DNA of 64,000 nt, from positions 248,001 through 312,000 of the forward strand of contig NZ_JAUCBM010000002.1 in NCBI RefSeq assembly GCF_030362795.1, given 5' to 3'. Below the pieces are notes generated by a model. The model was not told where the DNA came from. It ran no database searches and was given only the letters and a program-made list of their open reading frames with translations. Position 1 is the stretch's first letter. The number at the start of each line of letters is the position of its first letter. Shown one piece after another: positions 915 through 63,750 of the stretch. The translations under genes were made by a program, and so were the position numbers. This stretch comes from Pseudochrobactrum kiredjianiae (GTDB lineage: Bacteria; Pseudomonadota; Alphaproteobacteria; Rhizobiales; Rhizobiaceae).

Positions 915-1007
915 GACTTCTCCCTGAAGTTCAATGAAACGAAACACCGGAAAAAACAGCTGCATTGTAACGTCTGTTCAGTACGGCGGTTCTGTGGTTG
1001 TCAAAGG

Positions 1008-1066
1008 CTCTTTCGTTTTAGCGCATATATCATTTAATACGAAAGAGAAAAGCACAATTGCGAAAG
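1008..1066 (-). promoter_or_regulatory. TTTCG repeats upstream of ugpB, possible DeoR/GlpR-type operator
   Basis: A 9-bp perfect inverted repeat, CTCTTTCGT at 1008-1016 and ACGAAAGAG at 1039-1047, is followed by a third TTTCG on the minus strand at about 1062-1066. Repeated TTTCG is the recognition style of DeoR-family repressors such as GlpR, which would suit a glycerol-phosphate transporter. No such regulator is in the window, so the link is inference. Confidence 0.35.
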
Positions 1067-1227
1067 CTATTCACGCATAATTCTATGCACAGACACATTT
1101 TGGCGAAGAGTCTGTCACAAAACAAGCGATAATAAAATTACGTGCCGCAAAACTTCGATTTCAGAAAAACACAGCGGGCAGAGTGATTCTTTGCCATTTC
1201 CCGCCCTAAAACTCATAATTCAGGCAG

Positions 1228-1332
1228 AAAAAAAGCCGGACTATAAAGCCCGGCTGAATTTAAGAAGGCATTAATATGCCTTCGAGGGGAACACTTGCAG
1301 CGCGAAATGGGAGGAAGCGCGCCAGCAAGTGA
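1228..1332 (-). ncRNA. Candidate trans-acting small RNA, three hairpins, anti-Shine-Dalgarno loop (AbcR-like?)
   Basis: On the minus strand three hairpins follow each other with almost no spacing. Hairpin 1 (1292-1331) has the stem CACTTGC..GCAAGTG extended by GGCGCG/CGCGC, and exposes the loop CTTCCTCCCATTT, complementary to ribosome-binding sites. Hairpin 2 (1264-1283) is GAAGGCAT-ATTA-ATGCCTTC, preceded by TTCCCCTC. Hairpin 3 (1234-1255), AGCCGG..CCGGCT followed by seven T, is a textbook intrinsic terminator. A sigma-70-like promoter, TTGAAC (1360-1365) with a 17-bp spacer and CATATG (1337-1342), places the transcription start right at hairpin 1, giving an RNA of about 105 nt. Size, pyrimidine loops and layout resemble the rhizobial AbcR (alpha-r15) sRNAs that repress ABC-transporter binding proteins. 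The family assignment is tentative. Confidence 0.6.
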
Positions 1333-59406: not shown

Positions 59407-59616
59407 AATATTCTCCTGAACCATCGACCATAGTTGCGGTTGCCTCAACAGGGAGCTGGTTTTAACCATGACTGCGATATCACAGCAATCTTGTTACTGT
59501 TGCATTGCCAGATTTGGCTTTTCTGCCTTAAGGCTGACTTAAGGTCATAGGATAGTATGGACATTGTCACAGATCACTGCCTATCTAATTGGACAGGCAT
59601 GATCTTTCTTTATTTA

Positions 59617-59721
59617 TAGCATTTCCAGCAAAAGTGCGAAGCGATTTTGCGTCGGATAATGCGTAAAAACAAACAGTTACAGCGATTCCAACGATTCAGT
59701 TTTAGCTGGAACCGCTGTAAT
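59617..59721 (+). repeat. 105-bp dispersed palindromic repeat, type C copy 2
   Basis: It runs ATAGCATTTCCAGCAAAAGTGCG, TCGGATAATGCGTAAAAAC and ends GGAACCGCTGTAAT. It matches 29350-29445 in reverse orientation. It occupies most of the gap between the response regulator and dsbD. Confidence 0.8.
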
Positions 59722-59752
59722 CGCATGAAAATTACCAGACCCGCGGGATAAT

Positions 59753-61675
59753 ATGATCCGACATTTTTCCAGACAGCTTTTCAGCCTGCTTTTTTTAGGC
59801 CTTATTATATCTGCTGTTTTCACGCCACTATTCCCTGCTCAGGCGCAATCGGTGCGCAGCGTTGACGAAGTTATGCAACTGACCGTCACGCGCGATGAGA
59901 AGAACGCCCTGCAACTGCAATGGAATATTGCGCCTAAAATTTATATGTATCGTGATAAGATTCAGATCGAAAAGCCGGATGGCACGCTGGTGCCTCTCGA
60001 TGTGAATGAAGGGGTCGTTAAAGAAGATTTGAACTTCGGAAACACCGAAGTTTTGTATAATCATGCTTTTGCGCAGGTGCCTGAAAAGGATTTGCCGCAA
60101 GACGGGAAATTGCTGATCCGCTGGCAGGGCTGTGAAGAAGACAGCATATGCTATCCGCCGGTCACCAAATCGCTTGATCTGCAAACGCTTGAAGTGACAA
60201 AAGTCGCGCTGGGTTTTGGCGGTTTGTCGCAGAGCAACGGGACAGCAGGTCAATCGCTCGCACAATTGCCGACAATAGATTTGTCGGGGACGGAAGACAC
60301 TGCAACAGATATTCCCGCTGCTCCAACCAGTGCTGAACCGGCTGAAACAGGTTTCTGGGCCAGTCTTACAGATGCCAGTGCAGAGGATGTGAATGCATGG
60401 CTTGGTTCGAATTTCACGCTGATGCTGGCCGGATTCTTTGGTTTTGGCCTGCTTTTAGCGCTCACACCTTGTGTTTTCCCGATGATTCCGATCCTCTCAG
60501 GAATGCTGGCAAAATCCGGTGAAAAACTATCGTCCAGTCGTGGTTTTGTGCTGTCTACGGCCTATGTGGTGGCAATGGCAGCGGCCTATGCTTTGCTCGG
60601 TTTTGCGGCCTCGTGGTCCGGCTATAATTTGCAGGCCGCATTGCAAACACCTTATGCGTTGGGCTTTATGGCGCTGGTTTTTGTTGCGCTCGCTTTTTCT
60701 ATGTTCGGTTATTATGAGCTGCAATTACCGCAAGGCTGGACAAATTTTTTCAGCCGCAAAACAGCAGGCAAAGGCGGGGCAATCAGCGGTGCGCTGGTGC
60801 TCGGTTTTGGCTCCGCGCTGATTGTCGGCCCTTGTGTAACACCGCCTCTTGCTGCCGCGCTGCTCTATGTTGCGCAAACCGGCGATGCCGTGCGCGGCGC
60901 TTCGGCTTTGTTCGCGCTCGGTCTGGGGATGGGCGTACCGCTGATTATTTTTGGTACTTTTGGGGCTAAATTCCTGCCGAAATCCGGCCCTTGGCTCAAT
61001 ACAATCAAGCAGATTTTTGGCGTCGTATTTCTGGGGCTGGCGCTCTATATGATCCTGCGCTTGCTGTCTGATGAAAATGCGATGCTGCTGCTGGCACTGA
61101 CGGCGCTGGCTTGCGGTGTGTTCCTTGGCGTGTTTGACCGCTTGAGTGCCAAAAGCACGGTGATGATGCGGTTGGAAAAAACCACCGGTATTGCCGCTTT
61201 GATTTACGGCACATTGCTGATGGTTGGTTTTGCGGGCGGTTCGACTGATCCGTGGCAGCCCCTGGCATTTTTGCAGGGTAATGGAACACAGGTTGCACAA
61301 AGTGTCGTGGCGCAGCCGGCCAAAATTGTCAGAACCACAGCTGAATATGATCAGGCATTGAGTGAAGCAGTCGCAAGTGGCAAGCCGGTCATGGTGGATT
61401 TCACAGCGGATTGGTGTGTGACCTGTAAAAGCAATGAAAAAGTGATGAAACAGCCGGAATATGCGGCAAGACTTGGGCACCTGACGTTGATCAAGGCGGA
61501 TATTACCGAATATTCCGATGCAAACCGTGATCTGATGCAGCGCTTTAATGTTGTCGGGCCGCCAACGCTGATGTTTCTGGAAGCACATACCGCAACCGAG
61601 CAGAAACAAAATCGTATTATCGGAGAGCTGACGCCGGATAAGCTGAACAGCCGGTTGCAGGCTCTCGGCCTCTGA
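59753..61675 (+). CDS. dsbD: Thiol:disulfide interchange protein DsbD
   Basis: A 640-residue inner-membrane reductant conveyor. After the signal peptide the N-terminal DsbD-alpha domain has its cysteine pair in WQGCEEDSICYPPV. The eight-helix core carries the transmembrane cysteines in LALTPCVFPMIPILSG and VGPCVTPPLAAALLY. The C-terminal thioredoxin-like domain has VDFTADWCVTCKSNEK. It moves electrons from cytoplasmic thioredoxin to periplasmic thiols, for example in cytochrome c and copper-protein assembly. The ribosome-binding site before the ATG (GCGGGATAAT) is weak. A terminator hairpin follows. Confidence 0.95.
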   Translation: MIRHFSRQLFSLLFLGLIISAVFTPLFPAQAQSVRSVDEVMQLTVTRDEKNALQLQWNIAPKIYMYRDKIQIEKPDGTLVPLDVNEGVVKEDLNFGNTEVLYNHAFAQVPEKDLPQDGKLLIRWQGCEEDSICYPPVTKSLDLQTLEVTKVALGFGGLSQSNGTAGQSLAQLPTIDLSGTEDTATDIPAAPTSAEPAETGFWASLTDASAEDVNAWLGSNFTLMLAGFFGFGLLLALTPCVFPMIPILSGMLAKSGEKLSSSRGFVLSTAYVVAMAAAYALLGFAASWSGYNLQAALQTPYALGFMALVFVALAFSMFGYYELQLPQGWTNFFSRKTAGKGGAISGALVLGFGSALIVGPCVTPPLAAALLYVAQTGDAVRGASALFALGLGMGVPLIIFGTFGAKFLPKSGPWLNTIKQIFGVVFLGLALYMILRLLSDENAMLLLALTALACGVFLGVFDRLSAKSTVMMRLEKTTGIAALIYGTLLMVGFAGGSTDPWQPLAFLQGNGTQVAQSVVAQPAKIVRTTAEYDQALSEAVASGKPVMVDFTADWCVTCKSNEKVMKQPEYAARLGHLTLIKADITEYSDANRDLMQRFNVVGPPTLMFLEAHTATEQKQNRIIGELTPDKLNSRLQALGL

Positions 61676-61812: not shown

Positions 61813-62445
61813 ATGCAACGCCGCCAGTTTCTTCAACTCTCATCCGGTATCGCTCTGAGTGCTTCTTTTTTGCTCGCCGGGCAGCAGGCAGTTTTGGCGC
61901 AGGACGTGGATCTGAATGGTATTCTTTACGATCCTGAAGCACCTGTGGGCGGTAATCCGAAAGGCGATCTGACGATTGTCGTTTTTACTGATTATAATTG
62001 CATTTATTGCAAAAAGTCCGGCGTTGATCTGGCAAAAGTTGTCAAAGAGGACGGTAATATCCGTCTGGTCTATAAAGAGTGGCCGATCCTGACTGAATCT
62101 TCGGTTTATGGCTCGCAATTGGCATTGGCAGCGCAATTTCAGGGAAAATATGATCTCGTGCATAAGGCGTTGATGGCTATTCCGGGCGGCAAAGTCTCAA
62201 GAAAGGCCATGCTTGATGCGGTGAAAGCTTCGGGCATTGATATGCAGCGTCTTCAGGCTGATCTGAATAAGAACAATGGCAAAATCACTTCGCAATTACA
62301 GCGGGTGATGTCGCAGGCCGAGTCCATTGGCGTTGAAGGCACACCAACCCATCTGATTGGCCCTTTCCGTGCAATGGCACTGGATTATGCCGGTTTCAAA
62401 ATGGCCGTGGCTGATGCGCGCGCGCGAGAAAAAGCGGCTAAATAA
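61813..62445 (+). CDS. DsbA-family thiol-disulfide oxidoreductase, Tat-type signal
   Basis: A 210-residue exported protein. Its leader QRRQFLQLSSGIALSASFLLAG has a twin-arginine pattern. The mature thioredoxin fold shows the active site CxxC as VFTDYNCIYCKKSGVDL and the cis-proline region GVEGTPTHLIGP. It belongs to the DsbA/DsbG/ScsC-like group. Partnership with DsbD upstream suggests it may be kept reduced as an isomerase-like protein rather than acting as an oxidase; this is inference. AGGAGAACC precedes the ATG. A DsrE-like gene follows 23 bp later. Confidence 0.88.
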   Translation: MQRRQFLQLSSGIALSASFLLAGQQAVLAQDVDLNGILYDPEAPVGGNPKGDLTIVVFTDYNCIYCKKSGVDLAKVVKEDGNIRLVYKEWPILTESSVYGSQLALAAQFQGKYDLVHKALMAIPGGKVSRKAMLDAVKASGIDMQRLQADLNKNNGKITSQLQRVMSQAESIGVEGTPTHLIGPFRAMALDYAGFKMAVADARAREKAAK

Positions 62446-62468
62446 GAGTACATAACAGGAATATGAAA

Positions 62469-62903
62469 ATGAATGACCCGCTGATACATAATCGCTATCA
62501 GACAATTGAACAGCGGGTCGTTTATCATAATAACGGGGCTTCGGTTCATGCCTCTCCGGTCGAGACAAAAGCCTACATGACGGCTTTGCTCACTTCCCTC
62601 ACCAATCATGTGAATGCTTTATGCGCTGGGCTTGCTGAAAAACCGGCTTTTACGATTCATGTCGTCTGTCATGGTGCAGGGCTGGATTTGTTTGCCATTG
62701 TGCAAGAAGACGCTGTTTTGAAACAGCGGTTTGATAGCTTATGCGAACAGGGCGTTCGCTTTCTGGTCTGTGCCAATACATTGCGTGGACGTAATATGAA
62801 ACTCGCAGGTATTTACGGCGCGACAGATCAGGATGTGGTGCCAAGTGGTGTTGCAGAGCTTGGCCATCTGCAAATGCAGGGCTTTGCCTATATTCATCTT
62901 TGA
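62469..62903 (+). CDS. DsrE-family-like small protein
   Basis: About 144 residues. The fold signs are IHVVCHGAGLDLFAI, then GVRFLVCANTLRGRNMKL and DVVPSGVAELGHLQMQGFAYIHL, matching DsrE/DsrF-like proteins with a cysteine in CANTL that in relatives carries sulfur. No signal peptide is seen, so it is cytoplasmic, unlike its DsbA-like neighbour. ATG at 62469 with AGGA eight bases before it is preferred over 62463. Role in sulfur handling is suggested by the family only. Confidence 0.8.
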   Translation: MNDPLIHNRYQTIEQRVVYHNNGASVHASPVETKAYMTALLTSLTNHVNALCAGLAEKPAFTIHVVCHGAGLDLFAIVQEDAVLKQRFDSLCEQGVRFLVCANTLRGRNMKLAGIYGATDQDVVPSGVAELGHLQMQGFAYIHL

Positions 62904-62949
62904 TGAACAGGGCTGCTTAGCCATTAAAGCAATAATAGCAGGCTTGAAA

Positions 62950-62990
62950 AAGTAAACGCCCGACGCTGGGAGGAGCATCGGGCGTTACAA
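62950..62990 (-). ncRNA. Cuckoo/CcsR-type RNA hairpin 3 with terminator-like end
   Basis: On the minus strand AACGCCCGA pairs with TCGGGCGTT (62955-62986) around a loop containing GCTCCTCCCAGC. TTTACTTTTT follows, so it also serves as the terminator of the DUF1127-RNA transcript. It carries the CCUCC anti-Shine-Dalgarno core seen in the other two hairpins. Confidence 0.7.
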
Positions 62991-62992
62991 TG

Positions 62993-63025
62993 AATGACCG
63001 GTTGGGAGGAGGGAGACCGGTCTTC
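62993..63025 (-). ncRNA. Cuckoo/CcsR-type RNA hairpin 2
   Basis: On the minus strand GACCGGT (63022-63016) pairs with ACCGGTC (63002-62996) and exposes the loop CTCCCTCCTCCCA. The loop holds the CCUCCUCCC motif that defines CcsR/cuckoo RNAs found downstream of DUF1127 genes in alphaproteobacteria. Confidence 0.75.
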
Positions 63026-63029
63026 AATC

Positions 63030-63065
63030 GAACCTGAGTTGGGAGGAGGAGGGAGGCTCAGGTCC
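63030..63065 (-). ncRNA. Cuckoo/CcsR-type RNA hairpin 1
   Basis: On the minus strand CCTGAG pairs with CTCAGG (63033-63062), and the loop is CCTCCCTCCTCCTCCCAA. It begins about 20 nt after the DUF1127 stop. It has the longest CCUCC run of the three hairpins. Confidence 0.75.
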
Positions 63066-63083
63066 GATATCTCGGGAATTCTA

Positions 63084-63230
63084 TTAGCGCTGAGCTGCCT
63101 TGCGAGCCACAAACGGAATTTCTGCAGGCAGGATGCCGAGATCATTCAGTTCGCGTGTTGAGAGGCGGTTCAGTTCGTTTACTGTGCTGCGGTAACGGCG
63201 CCAGTTGTTGTAAGAGCGGATCAGGTTCAT
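63084..63230 (-). CDS. DUF1127 small arginine-rich protein (CcaF1-like)
   Basis: A 48-residue protein from the ATG at 63230, behind AGGTGAGAAAC. The sequence includes SYNNWRRYRSTVNELNRLS, then TRELNDLGI, the DUF1127 signature (W-R-R-Y.. L..L..R.L.DLGI). DUF1127 proteins can bind RNA; in Rhodobacter the homologue CcaF1 is followed by CcsR1-4 small RNAs, exactly the layout here. TATATA at about 35-40 bp before the start could be a -10 element; no clear -35 or heat-shock sigma site was found. The 500 bp upstream contain no gene. Confidence 0.88.
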   Translation of the reverse strand: MNLIRSYNNWRRYRSTVNELNRLSTRELNDLGILPAEIPFVARKAAQR

Positions 63231-63750
63231 GTTTCTCACCTAGAAAATTTTATGTCGTTGTTTGTTGAGTTGTATATAGCCCTGTTGATCCGAAATGAGC
63301 AGAGACAAATTTGCATAGCTGCGTTGCTTATTCATGCTGGTAAAAGGTGCCATCAGGCATCAAATTGTCATAATCATCGTTTTAAGTAGAAAACTTGCCG
63401 AAAAAGCTCTGTATGCAGCCCTGAAGCGGCCACAATCCCTCTCAAATTTTCATAAGACGCGTATTTTCAATAAAATAGCGCAGAGCTATGCCGGCAGCCC
63501 TGATACGTGACCTGATGTTTCTTTCAGGGTTTTTGCATGTATACTTCAGATCTGATGCGTTCACATGAGCGCCTGTGCGAGCTTCCAACGGCAAAATCAT
63601 TTAATTTTAATCGTCTGGCTTCCTGTTTCGGGCGTGACGAACAGATCACTGCGTCCGACATCAGCAACAGAATAGAGTTTGAATTAACAAACTATGCCCG
63701 GCTCAAATGAGTTCATTGAGCCTTCGCGAATATGCAGGACGTAAAAGAAT

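What the first reader, a model, noticed from the sequence alone, without database searches (positions are those of the whole stretch)
62950..63230. DUF1127 gene followed by three CCUCC-loop hairpins: a cuckoo/CcsR small-RNA array
Seen: a 48-codon DUF1127 gene and, within 130 nt downstream on the same strand, three hairpins with unrelated stems (CCTGAG/CTCAGG, GACCGGT/ACCGGTC, AACGCCCGA/TCGGGCGTT) whose loops all hold C(T)CCCTCCTCCC-type sequence. Different stems with the same loop means selection acts on an exposed anti-Shine-Dalgarno motif. Known: Rhodobacter CcsR1-4 (cuckoo RNAs) lie downstream of the DUF1127 gene ccaF1 and take part in stress and thiol/C1 metabolism control. Inference: this is the same system in a Brucellaceae-like genome, with the last hairpin doubling as terminator. 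Neither the peptide nor the RNAs would be found by standard annotation.
Basis: partly seen in the sequence, partly recalled or inferred. Interest (0 to 1): 0.8.

Follow-up and report, generated by a model that had tools for sequence, protein, structure and literature searches.

The report
DUF1127 gene with cuckoo-type hairpin RNA
A tiny protein gene is followed by a known kind of three-hairpin regulatory RNA whose loops can cover the ribosome-binding sites of other messages; the RNA kind is known, and the new detail is a promoter box suggesting that the redox-linked regulator LsrB/VtlR switches the unit on.

Summary
On the minus strand of a Pseudochrobactrum-like genome, a 48-codon DUF1127 gene (63084-63230) is followed by three hairpins (62951-63072) with unrelated stems and CUCCUCCC loops (fold z = -7.3). 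It is not undiscovered: the array is a full-length Rfam ar14 match (75 bits, cut-off 58.8). The Rhodobacter CcsR1 model scores only 16 bits (cut-off 65.3). DUF1127 plus CcsR-like RNAs is already a named arrangement (cuckoo RNAs, 'CIN1 locus'), so this is a new member of a known kind. What I add is the promoter. The published VtlR/LsrB box stands upstream here and, exactly, in 74 of 80 named relatives; a GCA-N9-TGC palindrome lies 33 nt before a -10-like hexamer in 77 of 80. Four of the five anti-Shine-Dalgarno RNA loci found in the genome share that layout; a second AbcR does not. The genome holds a trxB-linked LysR gene matching Agrobacterium LsrB (PDB 9HH1). Most likely mechanism: LsrB/VtlR activates a DUF1127-ar14 transcript whose RNA part silences uptake and catabolic mRNAs through redundant loops. 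Expression and targets are untested here.

The parts
63084..63230 (-). short DUF1127 protein gene, 48 aa
   Evidence: ORF; PF06568, 54.7 bits; 100% identical peptide in Pseudochrobactrum; 191 relatives found, best 80 kept
62951..63072 (-). ar14-type (cuckoo) small RNA array, three hairpins
   Evidence: RF02344, 75 bits, model 1-123 of 123; z -7.28
63027..63068 (-). hairpin 1, loop with CCUCCUCCC
   Evidence: fold; motif
62991..63026 (-). hairpin 2, loop CUCCCUCCUCCCA
   Evidence: fold
62952..62988 (-). hairpin 3, loop UCCUCCCA or part of it; terminator-like
   Evidence: fold; (13-pair stem 62986-62955)
62945..62954 (-). T-rich tail after hairpin 3 (TACTTTTTCA)
63313..63327 (-). VtlR/LsrB box: GCA-N9-TGC, holds GCAT-N3-TG-N3-T on the plus strand
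   Evidence: consensus from PMC7486931; 13 of 15 to the Brucella box quoted in PMC12595884
63274..63279 (-). -10-like hexamer CTATAT, 33 nt after the box; no recognisable -35
   Evidence: CTATAT is the -10 given for NfeR1 in PMC10746234; not picked by the sigma-70 scan

Best explanation
This is a DUF1127-plus-cuckoo-RNA unit (the published 'CIN1' arrangement) of ar14 type, transcribed as one RNA of roughly 320 nt from an LsrB/VtlR-activated promoter (box 63313-63327, -10 63274-63279, start inferred near 63267) to the terminator hairpin at about 62945. The RNA probably matures by cleavage after the DUF1127 stop codon into an ar14 RNA of about 120 nt. Its three exposed CUCCUCCC loops then pair redundantly with GGGAGGAG-type ribosome-binding sites of uptake and catabolic mRNAs and block translation, while the arginine-rich DUF1127 peptide acts separately, either as an RNA-binding factor or on PhoR. 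Shown by sequence: gene, predicted fold, loop conservation, box, spacing, and presence of an LsrB orthologue. Inferred from studied relatives: activation by LsrB/VtlR, silencing by the loops, processing, peptide function. Likelihoods: ar14-type regulatory RNA 0.95; LsrB/VtlR control 0.8; co-transcription with DUF1127 0.85; trans-silencing of transport and catabolic mRNAs 0.75.
For: Rfam ar14 75 bits over the full model. Of the 17 named DUF1127 loci given to Rfam (17 of 80 held), 16 score above the ar14 cut-off and the 17th, L104, has 57.0 against 58.8. 78 of 80 named loci have at least two strict loops within 600 nt of the DUF1127 stop, against 0 of 770 control windows. Stem and loop test over 172 units. 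VtlR box GCAT-N3-TG-N3-T within 140 nt upstream: 74 of 80 exact; control stretches 2 of 80 and 0 of 80 exact. GCA-N9-TGC in 80 of 80, -10-like hexamer at 33 nt in 77 of 80; control 2 of 80 have the combination at any spacing from 28 to 39. In 29 wider-family DUF1127 loci the palindrome plus -10 layout (31-35 nt) goes with the array: 15 of 20 with an array, 1 of 9 without (Fisher p = 0.003). Four of five anti-SD loci found in the own genome share the layout at 33, 33, 33 and 34 nt. A LysR gene after trxB matches PDB 9HH1 at 477 bits, next best 103; PMC11975290 deposits 9HH1 as A. tumefaciens LsrB and reports lsrB consistently in an operon with trxB (passages). Published for relatives (passages): VtlR binds and activates atu1667, the orthologue of BAB1_0914/BAB2_0512 (PMC7486931); VtlR activates three DUF1127 genes and AbcR2 in Brucella melitensis (PMC12595884); NfeR1/ar14 silences through redundant anti-SD loops and is LsrB-activated (PMC10746234).
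Against: No expression data for this genome. In S. meliloti, of six NfeR1 copies only one was transcribed to levels reliably seen by Northern blot in the conditions tested (PMC7143759, passage). The promoter counts rest on related sequences (76 distinct upstream regions of 80). The 6 of 80 loci with a one-mismatch box mean little, since control stretches reach one mismatch in 18 and 41 of 80. In the wider family the exact VtlR box occurs within 220 nt of only 18 of 29 DUF1127 genes, and as often without an array (6 of 9) as with one (12 of 20). In the own genome the tightened box has 20 sites against 11 reversed, 3 of them at anti-SD loci; the second DUF1127 copy has the palindrome but not the exact consensus and gives no Rfam match at E 0.01, and the second AbcR has neither box nor palindrome. 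The sigma-70 scan does not pick the CTATAT site. Not every DUF1127 gene has an array: 20 of 29 fetched loci from other genomes of the family do. The target-class test is only suggestive (6 of 20 against 1 of 20, p = 0.09).
Confidence: 0.8

Rival explanations
1. One reading: a CcsR-type stress operon, driven by an RpoH-type sigma factor under heat or singlet oxygen, acting on C1 and thiol metabolism.
For: Same arrangement of gene and hairpins; CcaF1-CcsR is the best studied case known to me (PMC10253847, passages). An alcohol-dehydrogenase-like gene (ADH_N; formaldehyde dehydrogenase by eye only) is among the own-genome genes with a loop-complementary ribosome-binding site (L182).
Against: CcsR1 model 16 bits against a cut-off of 65.3 in the window, and at best 35.1 in the 20 loci searched. 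The conserved promoter element is the LsrB/VtlR box. LsrB is reported only from Rhizobiales (PMC11975290, passage), so the Rhodobacter unit must be regulated differently. I did not score an RpoH matrix.
Confidence: 0.12
2. The hairpins work only in cis: a structured 3' UTR and terminator that stabilises or ends the DUF1127 mRNA, with no trans targets.
For: The last hairpin is terminator-like and the array follows the stop codon after 11 nt.
Against: Loops are far more conserved than stems and stay unpaired, which a stabilising or terminating structure does not need. The same RNA type also occurs in this genome without a DUF1127 gene, at C1:558903 (only two DUF1127 genes in the genome). NfeR1 loops have shown trans activity (PMC10746234, passages).
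Confidence: 0.1
3. The loops mainly bind a protein (the DUF1127 peptide itself or another RNA-binding protein), so the array is a decoy or a processing platform.
For: CcaF1 binds RNA and, with RNase E, takes part in maturation of the CcsR RNAs (PMC10253847, passage).
Against: Anti-SD complementarity of the loop explains its sequence. A. tumefaciens DUF1127 proteins have a documented protein partner, PhoR (PMC12501420, passages). Not tested here.
Confidence: 0.08

Closest known systems
ar14 sRNA family (Rfam RF02344; NfeR1/Smr14C2 of Sinorhizobium meliloti)
   Same: three hairpins, CCUCCUCCC-type loops, hypervariable stems, about 120 nt; full-length model match at 75 bits; LsrB-linked promoter
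   Different: NfeR1 is described as having its own promoter; here the RNA lies behind a DUF1127 gene, presumably in its transcription unit. Hairpin 3 carries CUCCUCCC without the leading C.
Rhodobacter sphaeroides ccaF1-CcsR1-4 (RF02791, cuckoo RNAs)
   Same: short DUF1127 gene followed on the same strand by RNAs with CCUCCUCCC motifs, then a terminator
   Different: CcsR1 model not met (16 bits against 65.3); one ar14 unit of three hairpins instead of four CcsR RNAs; LsrB/VtlR box instead of the RpoHI/RpoHII promoter reported there
CIN1 locus / cuckoo RNA family (Reinkensmeier and Giegerich 2015, cited in PMC10253847)
   Same: association of short DUF1127 genes with CcsR-like RNAs in alphaproteobacteria: this is that arrangement
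   Different: none found; the original paper is not held, so its definition was seen only through the citing passage
RFMSmelA075 / RFMSmelA099 (PMC3927594, 2011)
   Same: three or four hairpins, CCUCCUCCC loops, variable stems, several copies per genome (section 2.7)
   Different: its main text has no occurrence of DUF1127
VtlR/LsrB small-protein targets (BAB1_0914, BAB2_0512, BAB2_0574; atu1667)
   Same: small-protein genes activated by VtlR; atu1667 and the Brucella targets are reported to carry the VtlR box, and the B. melitensis homologues are called DUF1127 proteins
   Different: the passages that I read treat them as small proteins or, for atu1667, a 'putative sRNA', and do not mention a hairpin array; their own sequences were not examined here

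Membership tests
ar14 (RF02344) | covariance model score above the gathering cut-off 58.8 | tested here: met
   75 bits, positions 1-123 of 123
ar14 (RF02344) | three hairpins, each with an unpaired CCUCCUCCC-type anti-SD motif, and variable stems | tested here: met
   fold; loop/arm comparison; hairpin 3 carries the shorter CUCCUCCC
ar14 (RF02344) | expressed as a small RNA that silences mRNAs in trans | not testable with these tools
   known for NfeR1 (PMC10746234, passages)
CcsR1 (RF02791) | model score above cut-off 65.3 | tested here: not met
   16 bits
ccaF1-CcsR operon of Rhodobacter | RpoHI/RpoHII promoter | tested here: inconclusive
   a LsrB/VtlR box and CTATAT found; no RpoH matrix was scored
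CIN1 locus (DUF1127 + cuckoo RNAs) | short DUF1127 gene directly followed on the same strand by hairpins with CCUCC loops | tested here: met
CIN1 locus (DUF1127 + cuckoo RNAs) | co-transcription and processing of one precursor | not testable with these tools
   reported for ccaF1-CcsR (PMC10253847, passage)
VtlR/LsrB regulon | GCAT-N3-TG-N3-T box in the promoter | tested here: met
   63313-63325 plus strand
VtlR/LsrB regulon | regulator present in the genome | tested here: met
   LysR gene after trxB, 477 bits to 9HH1
VtlR/LsrB regulon | regulator binds and activates this promoter | not testable with these tools
   shown for atu1667 (PMC7486931, passages)

The most novel reading that the evidence does not exclude
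In Brucellaceae and Phyllobacteriaceae the VtlR/LsrB 'small protein' targets are in fact dual genes: one LsrB-activated promoter drives both a DUF1127 peptide and an ar14 anti-SD RNA. LsrB would then directly control most of the genome's anti-SD RNAs (both DUF1127 arrays, the NfeR1-like RNA and one of the two AbcRs: four of five found) through one promoter layout. Redox input would be turned into one coordinated silencing of uptake genes, and phenotypes credited to the small proteins (such as fucose use) may come partly from the RNA.
Probability: 0.55. Interest if true: 0.55.

Novelty: new member of a known kind. Interest (0 to 1): 0.3.

Why it matters
The locus itself belongs to a described family. 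Its use is that it joins two lines of work that the passages I could read keep apart: the VtlR/LsrB regulon, where DUF1127 genes are listed as small proteins, and the cuckoo/ar14 RNAs. In A. [quoted passage not shown] If the RNA lies in the same transcript, deletion and overexpression results for these genes need to be read again, and that can be tested directly.

Tried and rejected
CcsR1 membership was rejected on score. A RNAalifold consensus on a MAFFT alignment of 16 arrays recovered hairpins 1 and 3 but not hairpin 2, because the stems align badly; I replaced it by the arm-swap test. My first idea that all anti-SD RNAs of the genome share the LsrB layout failed: an ar15 search found a second AbcR (window 1228-1330 minus, 44.2 bits) without palindrome or box (best box two mismatches). 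The idea that an AbcR next to some relatives' DUF1127 genes marks the lsrB locus was not borne out: no LsrB match at E 1e-20 in the 80 loci with 1.5-kb flanks. Target class: of 52 GGGAGGA-N4-10-ATG sites (reversed control 7) 30 loci were fetched, 21 had ORFs of at least 80 aa, and 20 of these were scanned (L193 left out). Six were transport proteins (L171, L181, L186, L188, L192, L196). Of 69 AAAGGAG-N5-9-ATG control sites (reversed 23) 30 loci were fetched, 21 had such ORFs, and 20 were scanned (L229 left out): one transport protein (L200; two outer-membrane barrels and a DUF6691 protein not counted). Fisher p = 0.09: suggestive only, classes assigned after seeing the hits. The box-site enrichment (3 of 20 sites at anti-SD loci, 0.003 expected for four loci) used a tightened pattern chosen after seeing the loci; the array-layout comparison was also made after the fact. 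NCBIfam gave no name to the peptide and no model over its cut-off among the 25 shown for the LysR. Neighbouring genes: dsrE is found in 6 of the 80 loci (L066-L071) and dsbA in 5 of them (not L069), within 1.5-kb flanks.

Full report
Where it is. The window is G000:C2:248001-312000 of a 4.46-Mb genome. The DUF1127 peptide is 100% identical to that of Pseudochrobactrum asaccharolyticum, P. saccharolyticum and four further records, so the genome is Pseudochrobactrum-like. The gene and array lie on the minus strand; the convergent plus-strand neighbours are DsbD-like (59753-61675), DsbA-like (61813-62445) and DsrE-like (62463-62903) genes.

What is there. A 48-aa DUF1127 gene (63230 to 63084, PF06568 54.7 bits) is followed after 11 nt by an array of three hairpins (62951-63072). 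Folded alone the region gives -54.7 kcal/mol against -30.8 +/- 3.3 for shuffles, z = -7.28. CTCCTCCC occurs three times in the window, all in this array, and no such cluster arose in 100 simulated windows; with the looser CTCCC or CCTCC the clustering is not exceptional. Rfam names it: ar14, RF02344, 75 bits, whole model, cut-off 58.8; CcsR1 gets 16 bits, cut-off 65.3.

Stems change, loops stay. From the window and 74 related loci I took 250 loop-centred units, 172 of them distinct. Own arms fold to a mean of -18.4 kcal/mol, swapped arms to -10.2; 170 of 172 native units beat the swapped median. The TCCTCCC core is fully unpaired in 160 of 172. Mean pairwise identity is 0.30 and 0.32 for the arms and 0.90 for the loop. 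The loop identity is partly circular, since units were found by TCCTCCC; the arm-swap part is not.

How general it is. In 61 genomes drawn from the family (own included), 60 have an ar14 match at E <= 0.01 (56 over the cut-off) and 59 have a DUF1127 match. Of 31 fetched DUF1127 loci (2 own, 29 best-scoring ones from other genomes), 21 have at least two strict loops within 600 nt downstream: 1 of 2 own and 20 of 29 others. Of the 80 named DUF1127 loci closest to the window's peptide, 78 do; in control windows of the own genome 0 of 770. All 80 have at least one looser CTCC-type loop. Rfam on 17 of these 80 loci: 16 above the ar14 cut-off, L104 just below (57.0); no CcsR1 match above its cut-off in the 20 loci given, best 35.1.

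The second copy and the other anti-SD RNAs. The own genome has two DUF1127 genes. The second (C5:94157-94264) is followed by a longer, degenerate array ending in a strong hairpin with a U-run (z = -9.6; ar14 31.8 bits; no Rfam match at E 0.01). Two more ar14-model matches are an NfeR1-like stand-alone RNA at C1:558903-559018 (76.9 bits) and one at C3:134677 (24.6 bits) that is really ar15/AbcR (50 bits, cut-off 40). An ar15 search adds a second AbcR at C2:249228-249330, window 1228-1330 minus (44.2 bits). That makes five anti-SD loci found.

The promoter. PMC7486931 (passages read) gives the VtlR/LsrB box as GCAT-N3-TG-N3-T, and PMC8844928 (passage) places the same consensus upstream of S. meliloti abcR1. 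It stands at 63313-63325 on the plus strand, starting about 95 nt before the DUF1127 start. The 15-mer CAACGCAGCTATGCA (63312-63326, gene direction) matches the Brucella box quoted in PMC12595884 (passages) at 13 of 15. In the 140 nt upstream of DUF1127, 74 of 80 named loci have the exact pattern; control stretches 2 of 80 and 0 of 80. The other 6 have one mismatch, which control stretches also reach in 18 and 41 of 80, so those 6 prove nothing by this test. A wider description, GCA-N9-TGC followed by a -10-like hexamer, fits all 80, at 33 nt in 77 and at 31, 32 and 35 in the rest; control 2 of 80 at any spacing from 28 to 39. The same layout stands at four of the five own anti-SD loci, at 33, 33, 33 and 34 nt; the second AbcR lacks it. 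That one of two AbcRs is VtlR-controlled fits A. tumefaciens, where excess abcR2 promoter DNA did not compete for VtlR binding to the abcR1 promoter (PMC7486931), and Brucella, where abcR2 is the reported target.

Limits of the promoter evidence. The 80 loci are related (76 distinct upstream regions): this shows conservation, not 80 independent events. In 29 loci from the wider family the exact box is found within 220 nt of 18, as often without an array (6 of 9) as with one (12 of 20). The palindrome plus -10 at 31-35 nt, however, goes with the array: 15 of 20 against 1 of 9 (p = 0.003; made after the fact). Genome-wide, GCATARCTGNNNT has 20 sites against 11 reversed, 3 of them at anti-SD loci. 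The sigma-70 scan does not pick the CTATAT: there is no recognisable -35, which would suit an activator-dependent promoter but does not prove it.

The regulator. The best trxB match of the genome is at C3:132398-133315. Next to it lies a 301-aa LysR gene (L146:2700-3605) whose best solved relative is 9HH1 at 477 bits, next best 103. PMC11975290 deposits 9HH1 as LsrB of A. tumefaciens and states that lsrB is consistently in an operon with trxB in Rhizobiales (passages). An AbcR gene follows about 175 nt later, as described for A. tumefaciens (PMC7486931).

How it most likely works. LsrB/VtlR activates one transcript that carries the peptide gene and the RNA. The three loops act redundantly on GGGAGGAG-type ribosome-binding sites, as reported for NfeR1 on ntrB and on two mRNAs of periplasmic transporter components (PMC10746234, PMC7143759, PMC8844928, passages). 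In this genome GGGAGGA at ribosome-binding distance from ATG occurs 52 times against 7 reversed. In the scanned sample 6 of 20 encode transport proteins against 1 of 20 for another strong Shine-Dalgarno sequence, p = 0.09: suggestive, not a demonstration. The DUF1127 gene's own leader (AGGTGAG) is by eye not a good match to the loops, so self-silencing is not expected. The peptide may bind RNA (CcaF1, PMC10253847) or PhoR (PMC12501420); neither was tested. A caution on expression: in S. meliloti only one of six NfeR1 copies was reliably detected by Northern blot (PMC7143759).

What is known already. The three- and four-hairpin CCUCCUCCC families were described in 2011 (PMC3927594, section 2.7 read), and ar14/NfeR1 is well studied. 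The association with DUF1127 genes is stated as the 'CIN1 locus' in PMC10253847 (passage), citing Reinkensmeier and Giegerich 2015, which is not held, as are the CcaF1 paper and the A. tumefaciens DUF1127 paper. From recall, the latter reports LsrB-dependent regulation of DUF1127 genes. I made nine paper searches and opened eleven papers, of which I saw passages (none matched in PMC12218461) and one section; in these I saw no statement that the VtlR/LsrB-activated DUF1127 genes carry ar14 arrays. Since key papers are not held, I do not claim that it is unpublished.

Verdict.

Noticed in passing
window 1228-1330 (-): A second AbcR (ar15, 44.2 bits, cut-off 40) with a single UCCUCCC motif lies near the other end of the same window; it has no LsrB/VtlR box or palindrome upstream.
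   Followed up: partly
L067 (JAHREI010000005.1): A record titled Bacillus subtilis strain SK6B4 carries the identical DUF1127 peptide with array and the dsrE/dsbA neighbours of Pseudochrobactrum; the title is very probably a mislabel.
   Followed up: partly
L072:1174-1286, L074:1131-1243, L076:1144-1256, L078:1176-1288: An ar15 (AbcR) gene lies about 210-260 nt upstream of the DUF1127-ar14 unit on the same strand in Brucella endophytica, Paramesorhizobium deserti, Mesorhizobium RMAD-H1 and Phyllobacterium leguminum; LsrB itself was not found in the flanks.
   Followed up: partly
L164:1501-1515 (own genome C8:112325): A perfectly palindromic LsrB-type box (GCATAGCTGCTATGC) about 180 nt upstream of an AhpC/TSA-family gene, without an anti-SD array.
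   Followed up: partly
window 59607-59800 (+): Sub-threshold matches to Brucella sRNA models BASRCI153 (28.5 of 137 bits) and BASRCI27 (28.2 of 59.8 bits) just upstream of and overlapping the start of the DsbD-like gene.
   Followed up: no
L073, L075, L077, L082, about 999-1167 (-): A glycine riboswitch about 330-420 nt upstream of the DUF1127 gene, on the opposite strand, in four Brucellaceae loci.
   Followed up: no
own genome C5:93949-94264: The second DUF1127 locus carries a longer array with degenerate CUCC loops (z -9.6) and matches ar14 only weakly (31.8 bits): a decaying or specialised copy.
   Followed up: partly
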